NCBI GenBank assembly: GCA_945872795.1
Contig: CAMCAZ010000004.1
Location: 1 to 64,000 of the forward strand
From: Chryseobacterium gleum
GTDB taxonomy: Bacteria > Bacteroidota > Bacteroidia > Flavobacteriales_F > PHOS-HE28
DNA: 64,000 bases
Direction: 5' to 3'
The position numbers and the translations under genes are program-made. This document shows positions 3,635 through 35,742 of this stretch, in pieces (the stretch's first letter is position 1; the number at the start of each line of letters is the position of its first letter). The notes below the pieces were generated by a model, which worked only from the letters and a program-made list of their open reading frames with translations, searched no databases and was not told the origin of the DNA.

Positions 3635-5680
3635 TCAGCGTTTCACCACCGTGCTGGTCCACTGCTGGCCCGTGCTGCTGCGCACCAGGAGCAGGTAGCT
3701 GCCGCTGCCGAGCACGCTGAGGTCCAGCGTGCAACGATCGGCGTTGAGGCTGTGGACCAAGGCGGCCTTTCCGCTGGCATCCACCAGGCGCAGTTCGGCG
3801 CCACCTTGCAGGGCATCGAGCTCCACGTTCAACACATCATCGGTAGGGCTGGGGTAGACCCGCAGGCCCCGGCTGCTGCGTGAGGCGATGCCGGTGGTGA
3901 TGTAGAGGTACTCAGCGGAGAGTGTGCTGCATGCGCCGTTGATCAGCTCCACGGTGTACACCCCGAGGTCCAGTGGAACGTAGGTGCTTTCGGTCGCACC
4001 GGCTATGGCCTCGCCGTCCAGGTACCACTGGTAGGTGAATCCCTCCTGAACGCTCAGGCCACCGTCGACCTCCACGATGACCGGGGTCGGCAGTTCCTCC
4101 ACGGTGATGGTGAAGGTGCTGTTGTCCACCTGGCCGGTGAGCGCATCCGTGGCGTAGAGCGTGTAGGTGGTGGTCTCTTCGGGAAACAGCACGGCGCTCG
4201 TGTCGGCCAGGTTGCCGGGCTCCCAGCGGTAGCTCACCGCGTCGCTGCCACCGCTATGCGCAGCGCTGAGCAGGATGGAGTCGCCGACGCAGAGGGCCCC
4301 ATCCACCTGGGGGACCAGCTCCATGTTGGTCTTCAGGATGGTGAAGTGATCGCCGATGCCGCCATCGCTGTTCAGGAAGCGGCCGTCGAGGCGGTTCTTG
4401 TAGATGTCCATGATGTACGAGCCGTAGACACCCTCGCCGTTGATGTTGCTGACCATCGCGGGGTGGTCCATGCTGCCGTCCGTATTGCCGCTTCCGCTGT
4501 TGCCGCAGACCACGTAGACCGTGCCGTCCGGCGTGGTGGGCAGGACGTCCTTGAGGTAGGGTTCCCCCGCGGCCAGGTCGCCACCGTTGCCGTCCATCAG
4601 CATGGTCCCGGGGTCGAAGGAACCCGAGTTGCCATAGTGACCGTGGATCAGGTGGCTGCGCTCATACACGTGGCTGTGACCGCATACCACCAGGTCGATG
4701 TCGAATTCCTCCAAGAGGGGAACCACGCGCTCGCGCATCGCCTTGATGACCAGTTCCAAGAGGCCATCACTGTCGTGCGAACCCTTGCTGTACGGCGGCT
4801 GGTGGAAGTAGGCCACCGTCCACAACTTGTCATTCTGCGCGAGGTCCTCTTCGATCCAGGCCTTCATCCGGTCGATGCCGTCGGAGGTGTTGAGGAAGTC
4901 GTACACCTCGGAATTCAACGACAGGAAGTGGGTGTTCCCATGGTCGAAGGAGTAGAACACCTCCAGTTGCGAAGGGACCCCACCAGCCTCTGCCTGCTCC
5001 GGCACATCCACGATGTCGAAATAGGGCCCCTCGTGGTCCTCCAGGTCGATGTTCGAGTAAGGGATGCCGAAGAAGGTGCTCTCCCGCCATACCTCATTGT
5101 AGTCGTGGTTACCGGGGGTGGGGTAGAAGGGCAGCCAATTGAACACATCGCTGAAGCCGCTGAGGCCGAAGACCTTGCTCTGGTATTCGCTGTCCGTGCC
5201 ATCGTCGTAGGCATTGTCGCCCAACCAGATCCACACGTCGGTGTCCGCCGCACCGGGGTATGCCATGTAGGATTGTTTCACCGCGATCTGCTCCGCGTTG
5301 CCCTTGCCGAAATCGCCGATGGCCCATACGCGGATCGGCTGCTCGGTACCCGGCAGGGGGTGTGTGCGGAAGCGGTACTGTTCCGATGGCGTGGTGATCA
5401 GGCTGTCCTCAAAGCCCACCGCGTAGTAGTAGGTGGTGTAGGGTGCAAGGCCCGTGAGCATCACGCTGTGGTCCTGCACGGTGTTCCCCCCCACGATGCT
5501 CTGGTCCAGACTGTCCGGGTGAGCGCCGTACCAGAGGGTGGTTCCGATGCTCACATCCGTACGCCACATCACGATGATGCTGTTGTCCGTGGGCGTTTGC
5601 AGGTAGGGGCCGCGGACCACGGACTGTGCGGGCAGTAGGGTGGAGCAGAGCAGGGTGGTGCAGAGCGTGATGAGGCGCAT
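3635..5680 (-). CDS. Purple-acid-phosphatase-like metallophosphoesterase with T9SS tail
   Basis: This is a 681-residue secreted protein. After a signal peptide (MRLITLCTTLLCSTLLPAQ) comes a fibronectin-III-like N-domain typical of purple acid phosphatases (RGPYLQTPTDNSIIVMW). The catalytic domain follows, with GDFGKGNAEQ, GDNAYDDG, PGNHDYNE, a HQPPY stretch and CGHSHVYERS; these contain the Asp, Asn and His ligands of the dinuclear metal site. An Ig-like region lies at about 480-590 and a T9SS sorting domain ends the protein (RVYPSPTDDVLNVEL). It should release phosphate from organic esters outside the cell. It is the third secreted phosphatase in the first 6 kb. No promoter box of the TAnnTTTG type was evident just upstream. 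Confidence 0.9.
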   Translation of the reverse strand: MRLITLCTTLLCSTLLPAQSVVRGPYLQTPTDNSIIVMWRTDVSIGTTLWYGAHPDSLDQSIVGGNTVQDHSVMLTGLAPYTTYYYAVGFEDSLITTPSEQYRFRTHPLPGTEQPIRVWAIGDFGKGNAEQIAVKQSYMAYPGAADTDVWIWLGDNAYDDGTDSEYQSKVFGLSGFSDVFNWLPFYPTPGNHDYNEVWRESTFFGIPYSNIDLEDHEGPYFDIVDVPEQAEAGGVPSQLEVFYSFDHGNTHFLSLNSEVYDFLNTSDGIDRMKAWIEEDLAQNDKLWTVAYFHQPPYSKGSHDSDGLLELVIKAMRERVVPLLEEFDIDLVVCGHSHVYERSHLIHGHYGNSGSFDPGTMLMDGNGGDLAAGEPYLKDVLPTTPDGTVYVVCGNSGSGNTDGSMDHPAMVSNINGEGVYGSYIMDIYKNRLDGRFLNSDGGIGDHFTILKTNMELVPQVDGALCVGDSILLSAAHSGGSDAVSYRWEPGNLADTSAVLFPEETTTYTLYATDALTGQVDNSTFTITVEELPTPVIVEVDGGLSVQEGFTYQWYLDGEAIAGATESTYVPLDLGVYTVELINGACSTLSAEYLYITTGIASRSSRGLRVYPSPTDDVLNVELDALQGGAELRLVDASGKAALVHSLNADRCTLDLSVLGSGSYLLLVRSSTGQQWTSTVVKR

Positions 5681-20206: not shown

Positions 20207-23200
20207 TCAGGGCAATTGTGCCGCCCGTTGCGCGGTGGGCAGCAGGCCACCGATGGTGACCAGCACCTTGTCCCGGTCATTCCCGGCGCCGCCATATTTC
20301 ACCCACCCGTCCAGGTCCACATCCGTTTGCAGGTAGCCGCTGACCACGCTCGTGGGGATGGTGCCGCCAATGCTCACCAGGATAGGGTCGCGGTCGTTGT
20401 TCGCCCCTGCATAGCGGACCGCACCATCCCGCGCAGTGTCGCCCGCCCACAGCATCATCCGGCCGTCCTGAAAGGCCTGCGCCTCTGTGCCGAATGTGGC
20501 GGTAGGTACCAGGCTGAGGTCAAGGGTCACGGTCCCCGTGTTGAACGCGAGCGGGGAGGCGCTCATCACCCCCAGGTGGTTCCGGTGGCGCAGGGCCACC
20601 TGGTAGGTCGGCCTGTTCACCGTGACCGTCACGGGCGAGACCCCGTCCATACCCACGATGTCCCCATCGCGTTGGATCAGGCCCACGGCGGTATGCAGTA
20701 TCGTGGCAGGTGTGTTCGGGTCGCGCAGCTCGATAAGTACCCAGTCGACCACGGCATTGGGCCCGGAGACCGCGAAAACGCCGGGGTTCCGAGTGCTGCC
20801 GGAGCCTCCGAGCATCGTGAAGCCGGCCGCGGTGTAGGGCTCTGAGGTGGGTAGCAGACCGGCCGTACGAAGCTGGTCCGTCATCAACTGGTCCGTTGAC
20901 CGGTACGGTCCCTGGAGCAGGGCACGCAGGGCGAGGCTCACCACTCGTTCGCAGGCGTATTGCAGAGGCCCATTGGTGGCACTGAAGGCGGGGTCCGCGG
21001 CTTCGGGGAAGAGTGACCCACCATTTATCCCCTGGATGGTGTTGGGGCCCAGGTCCTGGGCCACCTGCTCTCCGGCTTCCTGGTCAAAGCGCCAGTAGCC
21101 CTGCAGGCCCGGGCTGCCCGGGTCTATGCTGTTGGTGTGCGCCGCCAGGATCTGTACGCCGCTCCGGGCCACGTTCCAGATCCGCAGTTCATCCATCCCC
21201 CCGGCATAACGTCCGCTGAAGAAACCCCGGCCCAGGTATTTCACCGTGAGGTTACCGCTGTAGGGGACCGAACTGGCCGCGGCATCCAGCACACCGTTCA
21301 CGTAGATGGAAAGAGCCGAGCCATTACGGACCACCGCATAGTGGTTCCACTGGTTGGCGTTCACGACCACGGACGAGGTGATGCGGGTGCCCGAACGGTA
21401 CAGGCGCAATCGCCCGCCCTCCAGGTCCAATGAGAGGTCCGTGTCGTTGCCCAGGATGGCGTCTGCGGCGGAGAGGCCTGGCAGGGGGCGCTGCCAGAAT
21501 TCAATGGTCCAGTTCCCGCTCAGCGTGAAGGGAGAGAAGCGCACTTCGTCATCCACGCCATCGAAGGACAGGAACTGACCGCAGGATCCACAGGGCCCGT
21601 TGGGTACAAAGGCGGCGTTCACCGACGCGTTGTTGGCCGGCACCACATACCCGTGGATCAAGGGCAGACCATCGCTCCAGGCGTCGAAGGAATAGCCGTT
21701 CCCGGCCTTGCACTGTTGGCCGTTCGCCAGTGCCAATTGCATCTCGTAGCCGATCGCCTGGTCCACCAGGTAGGGGGTGAGCACCGGCAATCCCTCCACC
21801 AACACCTCCAGGCCCGGGGGCGTGCTGGTGATGGTCACGTTCACCTTTTCGGGATAGATCTGCACGCTTGTGCTGGCCTGCAGGCCGTCCTGGTCGGTGA
21901 CGGTGAGGGTTATGGTATAGTAGGTGTTCCCCGTATAGCCGTGCCCCGTGGTGGGGATGATCAGGTCGAACGAGCTTGTGCCCGTGGCACCGGTCTCGGG
22001 GTGGATGTGCTGGTCGTGGTTGAACACCACGCTCCAACTGTAGCTCGCCTCGCTCAGCGCATCGTCGTCCGTCCCGGCGCCTTCGAAGGTGATGACCTCG
22101 CCGCCGCGGAACAGGGAGCCGGTGCCGGGGGAGAGGATCTGGGCCGTGGGCGGGGTCCCAATGTAGATCTCGACCGTCCCGCAATTGATGCTGGAGTTGC
22201 CGTCGGAGACCACCACTTGCGGGAAGAACGTGCCAGGGGTGCTGTAAGTGTGCTGCACCGTGGCACCCGTGCCGTCCGGTGTGCCATCACCGAAGGTCCA
22301 GGTGTAGGTCAACGGATCGTTCTCGGCATCCACGGCCGTGGCGCTGAGCGTGGTGGTGAGCGTGGGGCCGGGTCCATCTGAAGGAGTGGCCTGCACCGTC
22401 CCGCACGTGGGGGATTGGTTCGCGGAATAGAAAATGCGATGCACGGCGCCGGTATAGGTCACCTGCTCGGAGACCAGGTCGATGTAGTACAAGGCACCGT
22501 CAGGCCCCTGGAGCAGCTTCACCGGCGAAAGCGGATAGACCCCTCCGACCTGTGCATCCAGGAAGGGTTGGTCGCCGGTGACCGTTCCGTTCGCATCGAA
22601 GGTGAGGTAGCGGATGGATCCGCGCGCGTAGTCCCCGTAGAGGTAGCGTCCCTGCCAGGCCGCCGGGAACATGCTGCCCGTGTAGGTGAAGCCCGCCGTG
22701 ATCGATGCGCCGGCACCCGCATGCGGGTAGGTGAACACCGGGTCGCTGTACAAGGGGTCCAGGCAGGCACCGCTTGGTGTGCGCCCACCATCGCCGCAGA
22801 ACGGCCAGCCGTAGTTCGCTGCCGGTGCGCCCACATGAAGGTCCTCCCAAGCGATGTTATGGTCATTGCCACCCACCTCGCCGATGAGGAAGGTGCCGGT
22901 GGCCGCATGGTACGATGCCCGGAACGGATTGCGCAGGCCTGATGCGTAGATGGTCTTCAGCACCCCGTTGGCGTTCAAGGGTCCAGGTGTGTTGTCGAAA
23001 TAGGGGTTGTCCGTTGGCGTGGTGCCCGTGCTGCTGAAGCGATGCACCTTGCCGTAGGGGGAGGAGAGGTTCTGGGCCAGTGCGGGCGTAAAATCATCGC
23101 CCACGGCAAGCAGGATGTGGCCATCGTTCGCGAAGGCCATGCCGCCCCCGATGTGGCAGCAACTGTTGAAGGGGGCCGAGGTCTCGAAGATCACGGTCTC

Positions 23201-23626
23201 GCTGGCCAGCAGGGCTGTGTTGCCCGTGTGAATGAAGCGCGAGACCCGGTTCCTGTTCTGCTGCGTGCTGTAGTACACGTACAGGTAATTGTTCGTGGCG
23301 AATCCCGGGTCCACCAGGATCTCCATCAGGCCATGCTCACCGCTGTTGTTCACGTTCTGCAACTGCAGGTAGACCGTGGCCGTTACCGGGCGCTGGTCCA
23401 TGGGCGTGGTGATGTGGATGGTGCCTTGCAGCGTGGTGATAAGCATTCGTCCATCGGGCAGGAAGGCGCCGGAGGAGGGAAGGCCGAATCCTTCGATGAG
23501 CAGCTCATGTTGGAAGGGAGCAGGCTGCGCCTGGGCACGTCCTGCACCGAGGAGGAACGAGCACAACAGCAGCGCCGACCGAACAAGCGGACCGGTACCT
23601 CGGAGGGGTGCAGGGGGGCGGGTCAT
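20207..23626 (-). CDS. Large secreted sugar-dehydrogenase-like/PKD/LamG protein with C-terminal repeat domain
   Basis: From the ATG at 23626 the product is 1139 residues with a signal peptide (SALLLCSFLLGAGRAQAQ). Residues about 35-410 look like a glucose/sorbosone-dehydrogenase-type beta propeller (GFGLPSSGAFLPDGRMLITT, GEHGLMEILVDPGF, YASGLRNPFRASY, NYGWPFCGDGG). Then come PKD-like domains (DPLTYTWTFGDGTPDGTG), a LamG-like sandwich (WTIEFWQRPLPG ... GGMDELRIWNVARSG), and a C-terminus with two similar units (VRYAGANNDRDPILVSIGG; VKYGGAGNDRDKVLVTIGG), each after a DxxxDG-like loop. There is no standard FPNP-type T9SS sorting domain. It interrupts an otherwise conserved gene block. Substrate unknown; PQQ binding is possible but unproven. 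Confidence 0.8.
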   Translation of the reverse strand: MTRPPAPLRGTGPLVRSALLLCSFLLGAGRAQAQPAPFQHELLIEGFGLPSSGAFLPDGRMLITTLQGTIHITTPMDQRPVTATVYLQLQNVNNSGEHGLMEILVDPGFATNNYLYVYYSTQQNRNRVSRFIHTGNTALLASETVIFETSAPFNSCCHIGGGMAFANDGHILLAVGDDFTPALAQNLSSPYGKVHRFSSTGTTPTDNPYFDNTPGPLNANGVLKTIYASGLRNPFRASYHAATGTFLIGEVGGNDHNIAWEDLHVGAPAANYGWPFCGDGGRTPSGACLDPLYSDPVFTYPHAGAGASITAGFTYTGSMFPAAWQGRYLYGDYARGSIRYLTFDANGTVTGDQPFLDAQVGGVYPLSPVKLLQGPDGALYYIDLVSEQVTYTGAVHRIFYSANQSPTCGTVQATPSDGPGPTLTTTLSATAVDAENDPLTYTWTFGDGTPDGTGATVQHTYSTPGTFFPQVVVSDGNSSINCGTVEIYIGTPPTAQILSPGTGSLFRGGEVITFEGAGTDDDALSEASYSWSVVFNHDQHIHPETGATGTSSFDLIIPTTGHGYTGNTYYTITLTVTDQDGLQASTSVQIYPEKVNVTITSTPPGLEVLVEGLPVLTPYLVDQAIGYEMQLALANGQQCKAGNGYSFDAWSDGLPLIHGYVVPANNASVNAAFVPNGPCGSCGQFLSFDGVDDEVRFSPFTLSGNWTIEFWQRPLPGLSAADAILGNDTDLSLDLEGGRLRLYRSGTRITSSVVVNANQWNHYAVVRNGSALSIYVNGVLDAAASSVPYSGNLTVKYLGRGFFSGRYAGGMDELRIWNVARSGVQILAAHTNSIDPGSPGLQGYWRFDQEAGEQVAQDLGPNTIQGINGGSLFPEAADPAFSATNGPLQYACERVVSLALRALLQGPYRSTDQLMTDQLRTAGLLPTSEPYTAAGFTMLGGSGSTRNPGVFAVSGPNAVVDWVLIELRDPNTPATILHTAVGLIQRDGDIVGMDGVSPVTVTVNRPTYQVALRHRNHLGVMSASPLAFNTGTVTLDLSLVPTATFGTEAQAFQDGRMMLWAGDTARDGAVRYAGANNDRDPILVSIGGTIPTSVVSGYLQTDVDLDGWVKYGGAGNDRDKVLVTIGGLLPTAQRAAQLP

Positions 23627-23677
23627 GAAGCGGCACTGCGCGCACTTCCGTTCAAACCAGGAAGTGCCCGCAACGAG

Positions 23678-23685
23678 CAAATTTA
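23678..23685 (-). promoter_or_regulatory. TAnnTTTG -7 box for the sugar-dehydrogenase-like gene
   Basis: The minus strand reads TAAATTTG, 51 bases before the ATG at 23626, in the AT-richer gap after nadK. This suggests the large gene has its own promoter, not read-through from nadK alone. Confidence 0.5.
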
Positions 23686-29046: not shown

Positions 29047-30096
29047 ATGGCTATCCGCAATTCGATCGCACTCCTCGCTTCCATCGCGCTCTCCTTCACG
29101 GTCAGCGCCCAGGAGGGCAAGCCGGAGTTCGTGCCTTCGTTGATCGGGTTCTTCAACATCGAGAACCTGTTCGATACCATCGACTCCCCCGATACCGATG
29201 ACCGGGAGTTCCTGCCCGAAAGTGGCAAGCAGTGGGGCACACAACGCTACCTGCGCAAGGTGGACAAGATGGGCCAGGTGATCGCCGCATTGGGCAGGGA
29301 ACTCGATCCGCGCGGGGTGGCCATTCTCGGCCTGGCCGAGGTGGAGAACCGTTCCGTGGTGGAGGACCTCGTCGTGTCCGCGCCACTGAAGGAACGCAAG
29401 TATGCCGTGGTACATGACGACTCTCCCGATCGCCGGGGAGTGGACGTCGCCCTGATCCACGATCCCAAGCGCTTCAAGGTATACGCCCACAAGAGCTACC
29501 GGCTGGTCACCCCATCGGACACCGCCTTCCGGACCCGCGACCAGTTGTTGGTGAGCGGTGTGTTGGACGGTGATACCACGCACGTCATTGTGGCCCACTG
29601 GCCTTCCCGACGGGGCGGAGAGAAGCGGTCCATGCCGAAACGCATGGCCGCGGGAGAACTGGGCCGCCACATCGTGGATTCCCTCTTGGCGATCAACGCC
29701 AACGCCCGTATTCTCTACATGGGCGACCTGAACGATGACCCGGTGAACAAGAGCATCACCATGGGCCTCCGCGCCATCGGTGAACCGGCCATGGCGCAGG
29801 GCGGAACGCTCTACAACCCCATGTATGCACCCTTCAAGAAAGGCATCGGTTCGCTGGCCTGGCGCGATTCGTGGAACCTCTTTGACCAGATCATCATCTC
29901 TCCGGGTCTGGTGAGCGGCGCCGGTGGTCAATACAAGTACTACGGCGTCCGGGTGTTCAATGAGCCTTATCTGCGTCAGGAGGACGGCAATTTCGCGGGA
30001 TACCCCAAGCGTACCTTCGTGGGTGATACCTACCAGGATGGATACAGCGATCACTTCCCGGTCTTCCTGATCCTGGTGAAGGAGCTGAAGAAGTAG
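29047..30096 (+). CDS. Secreted endonuclease/exonuclease/phosphatase (EEP) family protein
   Basis: The 349-residue product has a signal peptide (SIALLASIALSFTVSAQ). The EEP fold shows IGFFNIENLFDT (metal-site Asn/Glu), ILGLAEVENRSVVEDL, the catalytic VAHWPSRRGG, MGDLNDDPVNKSI and the final SDHFPVFLIL. The family includes DNases and phosphodiesterases; which activity applies is not readable. It points toward a leftward operon encoding an OB-fold T9SS protein, a DUF5689 lipoprotein and a TonB receptor, a grouping that recurs in Bacteroidota. Starts upstream of 29047 lack a signal peptide. Confidence 0.88.
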   Translation: MAIRNSIALLASIALSFTVSAQEGKPEFVPSLIGFFNIENLFDTIDSPDTDDREFLPESGKQWGTQRYLRKVDKMGQVIAALGRELDPRGVAILGLAEVENRSVVEDLVVSAPLKERKYAVVHDDSPDRRGVDVALIHDPKRFKVYAHKSYRLVTPSDTAFRTRDQLLVSGVLDGDTTHVIVAHWPSRRGGEKRSMPKRMAAGELGRHIVDSLLAINANARILYMGDLNDDPVNKSITMGLRAIGEPAMAQGGTLYNPMYAPFKKGIGSLAWRDSWNLFDQIIISPGLVSGAGGQYKYYGVRVFNEPYLRQEDGNFAGYPKRTFVGDTYQDGYSDHFPVFLILVKELKK

Positions 30097-30432
30097 CGCA
30101 CAGCGCCTGGCGTGTTGCCCGTGTGCGACGCAGGCCTTGCGAGCAACGACGGATCGGACCTCGGTCCGGGATGGACCCACAGGGTCCTCGCGCACTTCGC
30201 TGCCGCCGTGGACCGTTCGGGCTGCCAGGTGCCCGTGTTCACCCGTAACGGTCCCCTCTGGATAGAGCCGAAGGAGCCTGCACGTCGCCACTGTCTGTGC
30301 ATATATGCCTTCGGTTCAGCCGCCCCGGAATGTTGGTGGTCGTGCCCCCCCTTCAGCGCGAACGGACAGGCCCGGAACGCAGCGACCCGCGCACTGGTAT
30401 CCAGGCGCGGGTCGCTGTGAAGGGGGGCAGGA
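30097..30432. other. Gene-free stretch between convergent genes
   Basis: The 336 bases hold no recognisable coding sequence. The only clear structure is the long hairpin at 30382-30415. Confidence 0.5.
30382..30415. terminator. Long GC-rich hairpin, possible two-way terminator
   Basis: GCGACCCGCGC (30382-30392) pairs perfectly with GCGCGGGTCGC (30405-30415), and the loop itself can pair CTGG with CCAG. It lies in the gap between convergent genes, 17 bases before the stop of the T9SS gene. There is no T-tract on either strand. Confidence 0.5.
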
Positions 30433-31806
30433 TCAGTGCTGAACGCTCAGACGGGTGCTCATCACCTCGTTCGCGTTGCGCAGGGTCATCACGTAGATGC
30501 CTGTGGGCAGCGTGCTCACATCAAGCAACAAACGCTCGTTGCTGCTTACAGCGCTCAGTGCCACACGACCACTGGCATCGCTCAGGCTCAGCTCGGTGCG
30601 GCCGGTGATGCCGGACAGGTCCACGGTCACCACGCCGTTCGTGGGGTTGGGGAAGAGGCTCACCGTGTTGCCGGCCAGTTCATCCACACCCGTGCTCACC
30701 TCGATGTCCGAGGCCATGCGGGGCTCCACCTTCCATTCGCCGAAGGTGAAGGTGATCACACCCCTCACCGAGTAGAACGTGCCCACCGTGGGGGTGGAGT
30801 CGTACATCAGGTCATCCACCAGGATATCACCCTGCCAGCTGGAACCCAGCCACTGAAAATTGTTGGTCATATCGGGCAGGTTCATGCACTCGATGTCGGC
30901 AACACGCACCAGAACACCTTCCCATTCTTCCTGTGCAGCATTGGCCGCGCTCAGGTTCTCGGCGGTGGGTTGTGGGTTTCCGGAGGAGGTCACCGTGGCG
31001 CTCACCAATGCGACGATCTCCGTGAGGCTGTTGAACTCGTCCACACGGCCCACCACGGTCACGTCATCGCCCATGGCGACGGGTGCTGCAGGGGCGCCGA
31101 ACACGTAGATGCCGCTGAAGGCACCGGTGCCGTCCTGGATGAAGAAGCTGGTCACCGCTCCGGAGGTATTGGTCACCACGCCGGTGACGATGCCGCTGGT
31201 CTCCACCAGCACACCGTCCAGAGGCGATGCACCGTCGGGTGCGGTGGTGGTCTGGATCTCGGAGATGGTCGCCGGGGTGGGCACTTCAGGCTCACCGGCG
31301 GATATCACCACATCATCGATCACGATGTGCTCCGGGCCGGAGGTGTTGATCACCGAGAAGATGAACTCGCCTTCCGCGCTGCTGTTGGTGCAGGACACGC
31401 TCTGGGTCACTTCCTGCCAGGTGGCGCCGTCGGTCAGCTCCACGTAGGGGTTGTAGGTGCCGTAGCCCGATCCCGTGGCGCGGCCGTCATAGATGTTGGT
31501 GCGGATCTGTCCGCGACCACGTACCCAGAAGGTGATGTCGTAGGTGGTTCCCGCCGTCACGGCCATGGGCTGCGTGGTGAAGCGCTTGTGCGTACCGGAG
31601 CTCAGTTGCAGGCGGACAGCGAAGGATCCGGCGTGGACGTTCTCGGTCTCCTGGAAAACGCTGTCCAAGGCGATGTTGGTGCGCAGTCCACCCATGTCGG
31701 TGGGGACGTTGTCCGTCCAGTTCTCGAAGCCGCTCTCGAAGACCGTCTGGGCCTGCATGGGCAGGGCCAACGCAGCCATGAGGCCTAATGCGTAGAAGTG
31801 TTTCAT
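30433..31806 (-). CDS. Secreted OB-fold (nuclease-associated-like) protein with T9SS tail
   Basis: The 457-residue protein has a signal peptide (MKHFYALGLMAALALPMQAQ) and a carbohydrate-binding-like sandwich at about 22-170 (ESGFENWTDNVPTD ... EHIVIDDVVISAGE). At about 178-360 it has OB-fold-like repeats (ISEIQTTTAPDGASPLDG, ETSGIVTGVVTN, FFIQDGTGAFSGIYVFG) resembling those attached to extracellular nucleases and to DUF5689. A T9SS sorting domain ends the protein (VSLFPNPTNGVVTVDL). It is third in the operon after the TonB receptor and DUF5689 lipoprotein, and faces the EEP enzyme gene. It may bind substrate at the cell surface. Confidence 0.8.
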   Translation of the reverse strand: MKHFYALGLMAALALPMQAQTVFESGFENWTDNVPTDMGGLRTNIALDSVFQETENVHAGSFAVRLQLSSGTHKRFTTQPMAVTAGTTYDITFWVRGRGQIRTNIYDGRATGSGYGTYNPYVELTDGATWQEVTQSVSCTNSSAEGEFIFSVINTSGPEHIVIDDVVISAGEPEVPTPATISEIQTTTAPDGASPLDGVLVETSGIVTGVVTNTSGAVTSFFIQDGTGAFSGIYVFGAPAAPVAMGDDVTVVGRVDEFNSLTEIVALVSATVTSSGNPQPTAENLSAANAAQEEWEGVLVRVADIECMNLPDMTNNFQWLGSSWQGDILVDDLMYDSTPTVGTFYSVRGVITFTFGEWKVEPRMASDIEVSTGVDELAGNTVSLFPNPTNGVVTVDLSGITGRTELSLSDASGRVALSAVSSNERLLLDVSTLPTGIYVMTLRNANEVMSTRLSVQH

Positions 31807-31847
31807 GATCCGTTGGTGTTAGTGTTCTGTTGAAGAGTCCGGAAGGG

Positions 31848-33134
31848 TCACTCGATGATTACGTTGTCCACCCTGAAGTTGGTCGTTTGTGCGTTCGGTC
31901 CGCTTCCGGTGTACCGGAAACCGATCACGAAGGGGCCGGAGTATCCCACAGGCAACACCGTGCCGAGGTCCACCGTGCCCGAGTTCACCCAGATCTGGTC
32001 CGCGGTGGCCGGTGTGGCGTAGCTGCAGGGAACGTTCTGCCAGTTGGCGGTGGCCAGGTTGGCGATGTTATAGTTGGTGCTGATCAACACGGCGAAAGGG
32101 TCGTGACCCGCCACACCGAACCCACGTTGCGTGCGGAAAGAGAGCGTCTTGCCGGGGGCGTAGGTCACGGGGGGCGAGATCAACCAGGTGATGTCGCTCG
32201 CATTGGAGGATTGGAAGGCAGTGGCCTGGGCGCAGAGGTCGCCGCTCACACTGTATCCCCTCCAGCGACGTGTTCCCACCTGGGGTGCGTTGATCCAGCA
32301 GTCGAGGTTGGTGATGTCGACGTTGGAGGTGGTGGTGGCGAAGTCCTCATCCACGCTCGTTGTGGCATCGCAAAGAGTGGGTAGAGGGTCGCAACGATCG
32401 GGGTCGTTCAGCAGCACTTCGTTGATGTTACGGATGAAGAGCTGCATGTCCGGGTTAGTGGTGCCGAACTGGCCCACCACACCGATGATGCTGCCCTTGC
32501 CGGTGGGAAGCTGATCGCCGGCGAAATCGGCATAGCCGCTGGTGCGCACGATCAGTTCATTGTTGCAATCGCTCAGGTAGCGGTTCACCGTGGTCTGGCT
32601 CACAGCATCGGCATAGGTCTGCCCGATCTCGCTGAGCGCGAACTCCACACCTGTCACCCGCACCAGCTTGCCCTGCATGTCAGGGGTCACCTGGTCGATG
32701 GTCACATCCTGCGGCAGCTTCACCACACCGGTGGCCTGCTTCACCACGTTGTTGTCCACGTCCACGCTGTCCAGCTGCATCATTCCCTGGTAAAGGCTCA
32801 ACTTGGTGCCGGGGAGATAGATGCGGATGGAGTCGCCTTGGTACAGGCCGCCCGAGTTCACCAGACGCAGCTGGATCGCACCCGTGTGGTCCTGCACATA
32901 AACGTTCTTGTACAGGTTGCCGTTCTGCTCGTCGGCGGTCACCACGGCAAATACCGAGGAATCACCCGTGAAGCGACGTTGCTGCACACCTGCGGGGAGC
33001 AGGTCACGCAGTTCCTGCACGGTCAGCACTGAACCCGTGGGGAGCGTGCGCACTGGTGGCGTATCGAATTCCTTCTTGCAGCCTGCGATGAGCAACACGG
33101 TGGCCGCGAAGGCGGCGATAATGCGAAGATCCAT
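31848..33134 (-). CDS. DUF5689 lipoprotein with choice-of-anchor-J-like domain
   Basis: The 428-residue protein has a lipobox (LIAGC, Cys19). The DUF5689/OB-like part spans about 35-245 (SVLTVQELRDLLP, VFAVVTADEQNGNLYKNVYVQDHTGAIQLRL). A C-terminal jelly-roll resembling choice-of-anchor J follows (DEDFATTTSNVDITNLDCW ... FVIGFRYTGSG ... NFRVDNVIIE). It lies 28 bases downstream of the TonB receptor gene and should be an outer-membrane or surface lipoprotein working with it. Ligand unknown. Confidence 0.85.
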   Translation of the reverse strand: MDLRIIAAFAATVLLIAGCKKEFDTPPVRTLPTGSVLTVQELRDLLPAGVQQRRFTGDSSVFAVVTADEQNGNLYKNVYVQDHTGAIQLRLVNSGGLYQGDSIRIYLPGTKLSLYQGMMQLDSVDVDNNVVKQATGVVKLPQDVTIDQVTPDMQGKLVRVTGVEFALSEIGQTYADAVSQTTVNRYLSDCNNELIVRTSGYADFAGDQLPTGKGSIIGVVGQFGTTNPDMQLFIRNINEVLLNDPDRCDPLPTLCDATTSVDEDFATTTSNVDITNLDCWINAPQVGTRRWRGYSVSGDLCAQATAFQSSNASDITWLISPPVTYAPGKTLSFRTQRGFGVAGHDPFAVLISTNYNIANLATANWQNVPCSYATPATADQIWVNSGTVDLGTVLPVGYSGPFVIGFRYTGSGPNAQTTNFRVDNVIIE

Positions 33135-33162
33135 GGGTAGGGTGTATCGGATATGGTTCGGG

Positions 33163-35742
33163 TCAGAAGCTGAAGGTCACCATGGCGAAGTAGTTCCGCC
33201 CGAAGAGGTAACTGTATTTGGGTGGGAAGCGGCCCACGTCCGTGCGCTCGTAGCGGGCTTGCTCAAAGCCGCCGATGCGGAAATCCTGATTGTCCAGCAG
33301 GTTGCTGATGGTGGCGTTCACCGCGATGCGGTAACCCTTCACCATCCAGCTCTTGCCTGCGAAGAGGTCGAGCGTGAAGTTCGCGTCGAGCTTCTCCTGC
33401 ACCAGCAGTTCGTTCCACTGGGGGTCGCTATCCACGAAGTTGTCCAAGGCCTCGGCCGTGCGACGGTCCGGGTTGGGGTCCAGGTAGATGTCGTCGAAAT
33501 AGTTCGCGTTCATGCCCACGAACCAGAACTTCGGCGAGTTGTAACGGAGGCCCAGGGAACCCGCGCTCTGCGGCATGCCGCCCACTTTGTATCCCTCCCA
33601 GTAGACCGTGCGGTCCGTGGCGAACACCTCCGGACTGTTATCCCGGGTGATGGTGGCGGTGGGGCGCGAGGAGTAGCGGTAGTCGCCCAATGCCAGCACC
33701 GCGGTGGCCGACCAAGTGCTGGTGAGGTTGCCTTCCACACCCAGCTCAAGGCCCTGGTGGATCTGGTCCACACCGGTCATGGTGTAGTTCACCAGCGTCA
33801 GGTACTCATCATGGTAGAAGCTGCGCGACCAGATCTGATCGGTGATCTGTGCATAGTACAGTGTGGCGCGACCCTTGATGCGCGGTGCGCGGATGATGTA
33901 GTTGATATCGCCGCTCAACGCCTTCTCGTTCGTGAGGTCGCCCACGGTGGTATGACGCGTGCGCGGGCTCACGAAGGCCGTGCGGGGATTGGGCGGACGG
34001 TTCAGGTAGGCCATGTTGGCCGAGATGAATTGGCGACCGCTCAGTTTGTAGGTCGCTCCTCCCTTGAGACCGAAGTGGAAGAAATCCTCGCGCTGTGACT
34101 CGCCGAAGGACTCATCCGGGAAACGGCCGTTCTGGTAGCGGCTGTCGCGCCAGAAGGTGGTGCGCGAGAATTCAAGGCCCACGTAGTAGTCCACGCGTTC
34201 CAGCTTCTTCTCGTACTGGCCGAAGAGGTTCATCAAGCGCGTGTGGATGTCGTAATCATACCCGAACATGTCCCCCTCCACCACGGTGCGGTTCACGTTG
34301 CTCAGGTCGTTCTGCGAGATGAGCGAATCATTGAAATCGCGATCGGCGAACTGGTCGATGTCCACCCAGAAATCACCGCCCAGCAGGTCATCCACCAATT
34401 TGAAATAGTGCGTCTTCTGCTTGTTGTAGCTGCCACCCACGGTCAGGTGTGCATTGCCCTCGAGCTCGGTGGTATACACGGAGTTGATGCCGATCCGACT
34501 GGGGTCCGCACGCTGCTCCTCCAGCACGTACTTGCTGCGGTTGCCGGTGAGCGGGTTGCCGGTACCGTTGGCGTTCTCCAGGGTGTACAGGTTCTTGCCG
34601 TTGGCGAAGTACAACTGGTCCCAATCGATCTGCCGGGCATTTTCGTCGTTCTGCCAGAGCGATGTGAGGCTCGCAGCCTGTGCAGGGTCGGTCTCCGTGT
34701 AGTAGCTTGGCAGGTAGCGATAGTAATCGGGCCTGGGGTCCTTGGCATCGAACCAGTTCAGGTTCGTCATCCCATCACGCCCGAACGTGTAGAACAACGA
34801 AGTGCTGAGCTTGGCCTTTTCCGTGGGCTTGTAGATGTGCGTGGCCATGATCATCGGCTTGTGGTCGAAGCTCATCCGCGCATTGCGCTTCACGCCATCC
34901 TGGTATCCCCAGTAAGGATTGTAATAGCTGTTGCCGGCCAGGTCGTAGGCCTCTTGGATCGCCAGACCCTGACGCCCCTGTACGATCGGCGCTCCCCAGG
35001 CCGACAGGCTCACGCTGTGCTGGTCGTTGATCCGCTTCTCGGCACCCAGGAAGTAGGCATAGGCATCGAAGGAGGTGCCCTCCACGTAGCCTTCCTCGGC
35101 CCAACGCTTGGACCCCGAGATGCTGAAGGCCCATCCGTTCTTCTGCATGCCCGTGTTGTAGGTGGCCATGATCCGGTTGCGGTAAGCCCGGTTCGTGGAG
35201 GCATAGGAGACCCTGAGGCCCTTGCGCAGGGTGCTGGGCTGCACACTGATCTCGGTGTACCCGCCGATGCTGCCGAAGTTGTAGCGCGATGGGCTGACGC
35301 CGGCATGCACCTGGTTCCAGCGCGTGATGTCGTTCAGGCCGGCCCAGTTGGACCAACTGGCCCAGCCGCTTTCCAGGTCGTTCACCAGCACACCGTTGAT
35401 GCTCACCAGCATGTTCTCCGAATCGAAGCCCCGTATCCGGAAACGCGCCTGGCCGAAGGTGAACCCCGCCGTGTTCGTGAACACATCCCGCGACGACTGC
35501 AGGATGCCGGAAACATCCTGGTTGCCCAGTTCCGATTCAAGGTCGGTCGCCGTGATGGTGAACACTGGCAAGCGCGGCTCATTCCGGAACGTGGTGTCGA
35601 TGGCTTCAACGCTCACCGTGTCAGGCTGCGCCATGGCAAAGGGTACCATGAACAGCCAAGCCATCAAGGCCAGCGCGTGGGTAAGGGAACGTGAAGACTT
35701 GCCGCCGAGGCGTGCGGGCTCTTGGCCGGAATGATCTGCCAT
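33163..35742 (-). CDS. TonB-dependent receptor
   Basis: From the ATG at 35742 the product is 859 residues. The n-region is long, then LMAWLFMVPFAMAQ ends the signal peptide. The plug domain includes DVSGILQSSRDVFTNTAGF, FRIRGFDSENMLVSINGVLVND and SIGGYTEISVQPS; the rest is a large barrel ending RNYFAMVTFSF. An ATG at 35832 would add 30 residues and lies just 29 bases below a -7 box, so it cannot be excluded. No carboxypeptidase-regulatory domain or SusD partner is seen. The operon continues with a DUF5689 lipoprotein and an OB-fold T9SS protein, suggesting uptake of a polymer product, perhaps nucleic-acid derived. Confidence 0.88.
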   Translation of the reverse strand: MADHSGQEPARLGGKSSRSLTHALALMAWLFMVPFAMAQPDTVSVEAIDTTFRNEPRLPVFTITATDLESELGNQDVSGILQSSRDVFTNTAGFTFGQARFRIRGFDSENMLVSINGVLVNDLESGWASWSNWAGLNDITRWNQVHAGVSPSRYNFGSIGGYTEISVQPSTLRKGLRVSYASTNRAYRNRIMATYNTGMQKNGWAFSISGSKRWAEEGYVEGTSFDAYAYFLGAEKRINDQHSVSLSAWGAPIVQGRQGLAIQEAYDLAGNSYYNPYWGYQDGVKRNARMSFDHKPMIMATHIYKPTEKAKLSTSLFYTFGRDGMTNLNWFDAKDPRPDYYRYLPSYYTETDPAQAASLTSLWQNDENARQIDWDQLYFANGKNLYTLENANGTGNPLTGNRSKYVLEEQRADPSRIGINSVYTTELEGNAHLTVGGSYNKQKTHYFKLVDDLLGGDFWVDIDQFADRDFNDSLISQNDLSNVNRTVVEGDMFGYDYDIHTRLMNLFGQYEKKLERVDYYVGLEFSRTTFWRDSRYQNGRFPDESFGESQREDFFHFGLKGGATYKLSGRQFISANMAYLNRPPNPRTAFVSPRTRHTTVGDLTNEKALSGDINYIIRAPRIKGRATLYYAQITDQIWSRSFYHDEYLTLVNYTMTGVDQIHQGLELGVEGNLTSTWSATAVLALGDYRYSSRPTATITRDNSPEVFATDRTVYWEGYKVGGMPQSAGSLGLRYNSPKFWFVGMNANYFDDIYLDPNPDRRTAEALDNFVDSDPQWNELLVQEKLDANFTLDLFAGKSWMVKGYRIAVNATISNLLDNQDFRIGGFEQARYERTDVGRFPPKYSYLFGRNYFAMVTFSF

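What the first reader, a model, noticed from the sequence alone, without database searches (positions are those of the whole stretch)
29047..35742. TonB receptor, DUF5689 lipoprotein, OB-fold T9SS protein and facing EEP enzyme: candidate nucleic-acid or organophosphate uptake unit
A leftward operon encodes a TonB receptor, a DUF5689 lipoprotein with OB-like sequence and a T9SS protein whose OB-like repeats resemble those on extracellular nucleases. An exported EEP nuclease/phosphatase gene converges on it. Receptor + surface lipoprotein + secreted binding protein + hydrolase is the architecture of a polymer-uptake locus, but no SusD, transporter or glycoside hydrolase is present. Nucleic acid or a phosphodiester would fit.
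Basis: inference. Interest (0 to 1): 0.6.

Follow-up and report, generated by a model that had tools for sequence, protein, structure and literature searches.

The report
Pilus-independent DNA-import operon for natural transformation
These genes most likely build the outer-membrane gate through which this Flavobacteriia-class bacterium pulls in foreign DNA for natural transformation without pili, and the neighbouring exported nuclease-like enzyme is a new candidate for the unknown enzyme that trims that DNA to one strand.

Summary
All four genes are confirmed: TonB-dependent receptor (TBDR), DUF5689/choice-of-anchor-J lipoprotein, T9SS OB protein and a convergent exported EEP enzyme (PF19580). 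TBDR and DUF5689 are orthologues of Riemerella anatipestifer RA0C_RS04915/RS04920. Clean deletion of either abolishes natural transformation there (PMC8459023). The pair occurs in exactly the same 66 of 392 Bacteroidota genomes. EEP lies beside the pair in 47 of 60 loci, and in Riemerella, where its position matches RS04910. It stays with the TBDR in two genomes where DUF5689 has moved away. The window's genome also has ComEC, a three-HhH protein and a DUF1343 protein, as in Riemerella, and neither genome has a secretin.

Best explanation: TonB-driven DNA import across the outer membrane for transformation. New inference: both ComECs lack the beta-lactamase-like nuclease domain that degrades the non-translocating strand elsewhere. 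The linked periplasmic EEP, with every catalytic residue intact, is a candidate for the 'unidentified' strand-degrading nuclease. The T9SS OB protein is a lineage-specific addition.

Feeding or phosphate scavenging as the main role is not shown; it remains the main rival. Caveats: the DUF5689 lipoprotein is acidic, no EEP mutant is known, and nothing has been tested in this organism.

The parts
33163..35742 (-). TonB-dependent receptor (859 aa): plug plus 22-strand-type barrel; proposed outer-membrane DNA gate; orthologue of RA0C_RS04915
   Evidence: Plug PF07715; best hit in the R. anatipestifer genome, 36%, 424 bits versus 138 for the next; AF2 mean pLDDT 85, Foldseek to TBDRs
31848..33134 (-). 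Surface lipoprotein: DUF5689 (predicted beta-rich, OB-like) plus choice-of-anchor-J jelly roll; proposed DNA-capture partner of the receptor; orthologue of RA0C_RS04920 (NCBIfam 'M949_1556 family lipoprotein')
   Evidence: only DUF5689 match in its genome; BLASTP to the Riemerella protein E 2e-25
30433..31806 (-). T9SS type A secreted protein: CBM4_9-like domain, ExeM/NucH-type OB region, Por_Secre_tail; lineage-specific accessory
   Evidence: adjacent in 15/15 own-genus and 3/4 near-family loci but 0/41 others
30360..30440 (.). Hairpin between the convergent T9SS and EEP genes, probably a bidirectional terminator
   Evidence: fold -44.7 kcal/mol, z -6.2, 0 of 200 shuffles as stable
29047..30096 (+). 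Exported EEP-superfamily enzyme (PF19580), predicted periplasmic (signal peptide, no lipobox, no T9SS tail); proposed nuclease acting on incoming DNA; positional and sequence match to RA0C_RS04910
   Evidence: PF19580 406 bits; N37, E98, H184, D227, N229, D335, H336 invariant in 30 sequences; 39% to the Riemerella neighbour; linked in 47/60 loci

Best explanation
The operon encodes the outer-membrane stage of a pilus-independent DNA-import system used for natural transformation. The surface lipoprotein (DUF5689 + jelly roll), helped in this lineage by the T9SS-exported OB protein, captures extracellular DNA. The TonB-dependent receptor passes it through the outer membrane using TonB energy. 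In the periplasm a membrane-anchored three-HhH protein receives it, and the EEP enzyme degrades one strand because ComEC here lacks its own nuclease domain. ComEC then takes single-stranded DNA into the cell. Shown elsewhere by genetics: the orthologous receptor, lipoprotein, HhH, DUF1343 and ComEC proteins are each essential for transformation in R. anatipestifer. Shown here: orthology, synteny, co-occurrence, intact EEP catalytic residues, absence of a secretin, absence of the ComEC nuclease domain. Inferred: DNA passage through the receptor, DNA binding by the lipoprotein and OB protein, and the strand-degrading role of EEP.
For: 1) Markerless deletion of RA0C_RS04915 or RS04920 takes transformation from 5.4e-5 to below about 4e-10 (PMC8459023). 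The window proteins match these: TBDR 33% over 871 aa (E 6e-146) and DUF5689 28% over 402 aa (E 2e-25); the neighbouring EEP matches at 39% over 398 aa (E 4e-86), with the order EEP-TBDR-DUF5689 close to comEC in Riemerella. Each genome has a single DUF5689 match, and the Riemerella lipoprotein is the named M949_1556 family (590 bits). 2) Strong DUF5689 and strong TBDR occur in the same 66 of 392 Bacteroidota genomes, with none having only one. The TBDR is directly upstream in 57/60 loci, and the other three genomes carry it elsewhere. 3) EEP lies within 5.5 kb in 47/60 loci against 0/20 weak-DUF5689 controls. In G304 and G391 DUF5689 is about 38 kb away but EEP is still beside the TBDR. 4) The window's genome has ComEC, DUF1343/NamZ and an orthologue of the three-HhH protein, and no secretin. 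5) Both ComECs have the OB and channel domains but no PF00753 domain even at E <= 1; that domain degrades the non-translocating strand elsewhere, and EndA replaces it in pneumococcus (PMC12455585). 6) tonB mutants of R. anatipestifer transform less (PMC8383284). 7) In four own-genus genomes examined where EEP has left the locus, it sits beside an OB/T9SS-type protein; the three of these that were scanned carry DUF5689-like and PLD (NucT-like nuclease) domains.
Against: No experiment exists in this organism. EEP was not hit in the Riemerella screen, which was only 3,000 insertions, and each of the two genomes has a second PF19580 copy. The DUF5689 lipoprotein is acidic (pI 4.6 here; family median 4.65), as is the T9SS OB protein (pI 4.1), which is unusual for a DNA binder. 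hhalign finds no shared OB profile between these two proteins, and Foldseek matches only the jelly-roll half of the lipoprotein. The tonBB effect on transformation is confounded by iron. F. johnsoniae has homologues but was not transformable under the same conditions (PMC8459023, PMC7965970). Disruption of M949_1556 in another strain was reported to alter LPS antigenicity and virulence (cited in PMC4976936 and PMC12566107).
Confidence: 0.68

Rival explanations
1. A DNA-scavenging (nutrient) unit: receptor and lipoprotein import DNA or oligonucleotides, EEP hydrolyses them in the periplasm for P, N and nucleosides, and transformation is a by-product.
For: EEP is a hydrolase, and in own-genus relatives it also neighbours a PLD (NucT-like) nuclease gene with export signals. 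Removing phosphate from the medium lowers transformation in Riemerella. F. johnsoniae induces other secreted nucleases under phosphate limitation.
Against: Deletion of the Riemerella orthologues gives a complete transformation block. No further gene family is conserved beside the receptor across the surveyed loci, so no nucleotidase or nucleoside-transporter set is seen. The DUF5689 and PF19580 accessions are absent from the main text of the F. johnsoniae phosphate-starvation paper.
Confidence: 0.17
2. The receptor imports another nutrient or cofactor (for example a metal complex) that cells need in order to be competent, and EEP is a bystander phosphatase.
For: The receptor fold is closest to small-ligand TBDRs (PqqU, Fiu, OprC, FhuA). 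Iron and TonB influence transformation in Riemerella. The lipoprotein is acidic.
Against: The co-occurring lipoprotein is equally essential. EEP stays linked to the receptor even where DUF5689 has moved. Nearby OB and nuclease genes point to DNA.
Confidence: 0.1
3. An envelope or LPS-related locus whose loss blocks DNA uptake indirectly.
For: M949_1556 was linked to LPS antigenicity and virulence in R. anatipestifer CH3.
Against: No other gene family, LPS-related or not, is conserved in the neighbourhood across the loci, whereas a nuclease-family gene is. The clean deletion phenotype is total while several other mutants in the same screen are only partial.
Confidence: 0.05

Closest known systems
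Riemerella anatipestifer RA0C_RS04915/RS04920 natural-transformation pair (PMC8459023)
   Same: Orthologous receptor and DUF5689 lipoprotein, same order and operon; ComEC, three-HhH and DUF1343 proteins accompany them in the genome
   Different: The window's receptor lacks the N-terminal carboxypeptidase-regulatory domain, the operon has an extra T9SS OB gene, and EEP is convergent downstream instead of divergent upstream; a distant family within the class
SusCD/PUL and phosphate-utilisation (Pus) loci
   Same: TonB receptor plus surface lipoprotein plus hydrolase
   Different: No SusD domain, no SusC-type receptor, no glycoside hydrolase or phosphatase set
ExeM/NucH extracellular DNases
   Same: The window's T9SS protein matches the N-terminal OB part of the model and the Riemerella EEP matches its catalytic part, as if one DNase were split over two genes
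   Different: Two separate proteins with different predicted locations; both far below the model's 300-bit cut-off
Type IV pilus/PilQ DNA uptake
   Same: Would deliver DNA to a periplasmic HhH protein and ComEC
   Different: No secretin in this genome

Membership tests
Riemerella-type transformation outer-membrane pair (RS04915/RS04920) | TBDR-type barrel orthologous to RS04915 | tested here: met
   Best hit in the Riemerella genome at 424 bits, next 138; 33% over 871 aa
Riemerella-type transformation outer-membrane pair (RS04915/RS04920) | Adjacent DUF5689 + choice-of-anchor-J lipoprotein | tested here: met
   below the 475-bit cut-off of the narrow NCBIfam subfamily (149 bits)
Riemerella-type transformation outer-membrane pair (RS04915/RS04920) | Rest of the essential set in the genome (ComEC, three-HhH protein, DUF1343) | tested here: met
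   DprA, ComF and RecA not searched
Riemerella-type transformation outer-membrane pair (RS04915/RS04920) | Required for transformation | not testable with these tools
   Needs mutants; organism known here only from its genome
SusCD-type uptake locus | SusD-like lipoprotein beside a SusC receptor | tested here: not met
   Only DUF5689 and DUF5017 found in the lipoprotein, only Plug in the receptor
ExeM/NucH extracellular DNase | OB plus EEP in one protein above the 300-bit cut-off | tested here: not met
   47.5 bits for the OB part only; the window's EEP has no hit
EEP (DNase I-like) nuclease/phosphatase superfamily, PF19580 | Catalytic Asn, Glu, His, Asp, Asn, Asp-His | tested here: met
   All invariant in 30 sequences; substrate not determined
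Type IV pilus DNA uptake | Secretin (PF00263) | tested here: not met
   No match in the window's genome or in Riemerella; 6 of 14 control genomes positive

The most novel reading that the evidence does not exclude
A TonB-dependent receptor is itself the channel that brings double-stranded DNA across the outer membrane, a DNA-import route other than pili and secretion systems, found through much of the Flavobacteriia; and the linked periplasmic EEP enzyme is the EndA-like nuclease that makes it single-stranded, because ComEC here has lost its nuclease domain.
Probability: 0.35. Interest if true: 0.85.

Novelty: new variant of a known kind. Interest (0 to 1): 0.62.

Why it matters
How Bacteroidota without pili or secretins bring DNA across the outer membrane is open, and the one genetic study found here leaves the strand-degrading nuclease 'unidentified'. 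This locus extends the known essential pair to distant families and shows the pair is inseparable across 66 sampled genomes. It names a specific, conserved, catalytically intact candidate for the missing nuclease and explains why one is needed: neither ComEC examined carries the nuclease domain. If right, it gives a marker for transformability in a widespread phylum, and a rare example of a TonB receptor moving a macromolecule.

Tried and rejected
Organophosphate or nutrient uptake as the main role: kept as a rival, not supported by the known phenotype. SusCD-type locus: no SusD domain. ExeM/NucH membership: scores far below cut-off. DNA binding from sequence alone: charge analysis argues against simple electrostatic binding, hhalign found no common OB profile between the lipoprotein and the T9SS protein, and Foldseek matched only the jelly roll. 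No solved structure matches the EEP or the lipoprotein by sequence. The T9SS protein as a core component: rejected, absent next to the pair in 41 loci outside the near families. Link to the F. johnsoniae phosphate regulon: Fjoh_3841 (PF13620 TBDT, induced by phosphate depletion) could not be tied to or separated from the receptor orthologue; left open. One search failed on a range limit, and the listing is stale output from that failure and was not used.
Full report
OBSERVATION. The four genes are real and placed as described. The leftward operon is TBDR (33163-35742), DUF5689 lipoprotein (31848-33134) and T9SS protein (30433-31806), with gaps of 28 and 41 bp. The EEP gene (29047-30096) runs towards it, and a strong hairpin lies between the two. 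Pfam and NCBIfam confirm PF19580 for EEP, DUF5689 + DUF5017/choice-of-anchor J for the lipoprotein, Plug for the receptor, and CBM4_9-like + ExeM/NucH-type OB + Por_Secre_tail for the T9SS protein. Catalytic positions of the EEP family (N37, E98, H184, D227, N229, D335, H336; assigned from general knowledge of the superfamily) are invariant in 30 sequences. The mature EEP has no lipobox and no T9SS tail, so it is probably periplasmic (inference).

THE KEY LINK. A full-text search for DUF5689 returned a single paper: the transposon screen for natural-transformation genes in Riemerella anatipestifer (PMC8459023). There RA0C_RS04920 (DUF5689 + DUF5017, choice-of-anchor J) and RA0C_RS04915 (outer-membrane protein with a PF13620 domain) form an operon, and a markerless deletion of either drops transformation below detection. 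I located the Riemerella locus through a published comEC primer. Its gene order is comEC, two genes, EEP (leftward), TBDR (rightward), DUF5689 (rightward), which fits locus tags RS04895 to RS04920 in sequence and makes EEP RS04910 by position (a different strain, so the tag is inferred from order). The window proteins match these at 33% (TBDR), 28% (DUF5689) and 39% (EEP). The TBDR's best hit in the whole Riemerella genome is this one, 424 bits against 138 for the next. Each genome has one DUF5689 match. The NCBIfam family 'M949_1556 family lipoprotein' contains the Riemerella protein (590 bits), so a label taken from an LPS/antigenicity paper hides the transformation role.

CONSERVATION. In 392 Bacteroidota genomes, strong DUF5689 (over 100 bits) and strong receptor (over 500 bits) matches occur in the same 66 genomes, none with only one. 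All are in the window's class; shared ancestry inflates any P value, so I rely on the absence of exceptions. In 60 neighbourhoods the receptor is directly upstream in 57, EEP is within 5.5 kb in 47, and the T9SS protein is downstream in 18, all in the window's genus and near families. Among 20 weak-DUF5689 control loci none has any of the three. The three strong loci without an adjacent receptor carry it elsewhere in the genome; in two of them EEP is still beside the receptor while DUF5689 is about 38 kb away.

WHERE EEP GOES WHEN IT LEAVES. In six of 15 own-genus loci EEP is absent from the locus. Each of those genomes keeps a single PF19580 copy elsewhere. In the four I fetched it sits beside a protein that matches the T9SS/OB profile. 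The three of these that I scanned carry DUF5689-like sequence and PLD domains resembling the nuclease NucT, with a T9SS tail found by Pfam in two. Both contexts point to nucleic acid.

THE REST OF THE PATHWAY. The window's genome encodes ComEC, a DUF1343/NamZ protein and a membrane-anchored protein with three HhH matches, orthologous to the Riemerella one (28%, E 1e-22). These are families essential in Riemerella. Neither genome has a secretin. Both ComECs carry the OB and channel domains but no beta-lactamase-like domain even at E <= 1. PMC12455585 shows that this domain degrades the non-translocating strand, and notes that EndA does so in pneumococcus and that H. pylori lacks both. The Riemerella authors left the duplex-to-single-strand step to an 'unidentified protein'. 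The linked EEP is therefore a reasoned candidate; this is my inference, not a demonstrated function.

STRUCTURE. The lipoprotein model is confident (mean pLDDT 91); its C-terminal half is a jelly roll like gingipain adhesin domains. Its N-terminal half is beta-rich and OB-like by topology, without a PDB match. The receptor model (mean pLDDT 85) is a classical TBDR. The acidic charge of the lipoprotein is the most awkward fact for DNA binding; metal-bridged or shape-based binding, or binding by the complex only, would be needed.

VERDICT. A DNA-import unit for natural transformation, recognised here in a lineage distant from Riemerella, with two additions to the known system: the linked EEP candidate nuclease and the lineage-specific T9SS OB protein. 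Orthology and linkage are shown; DNA transport through the receptor and the EEP role are inferred. The nutrient-scavenging rival survives because imported DNA can serve both ends.

Noticed in passing
L169-L172 (own-genus genomes G400, G408, G393, G421): EEP gene beside a protein combining DUF5689-like sequence with PLD (NucT-like nuclease) domains and, in some, a recognisable T9SS tail: a possible secreted DNA-degrading unit.
   Followed up: partly
window 3635-5680 (-): T9SS-exported purple-acid-phosphatase-like metallophosphatase (PF16656 + PF00149 + Por_Secre_tail).
   Followed up: partly
window 20207-23680 (-): Large exported protein with glucose/sorbosone dehydrogenase, PKD and laminin-G-like domains.
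   Followed up: partly
L168 1108-2142 (-), own genome contig C3: Second PF19580 EEP copy whose N-terminus looks like a lipoprotein signal; a possible redundant partner of the window's EEP.
   Followed up: partly
L078 and L079: Tandem duplication of the DUF5689 lipoprotein gene downstream of the receptor; other genomes carry two DUF5689 domains in one 650-750 aa protein.
   Followed up: no
L099, L103, L110: Two EEP (PF19580) genes near the same receptor/DUF5689 pair, one on each side.
   Followed up: no
L123 12211-17653 (R. anatipestifer): Next to the transformation pair lies a gene for a 1,400-aa protein followed by 299- and 112-aa genes that look like a type II CRISPR-Cas set (recognised by eye only).
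   Followed up: no
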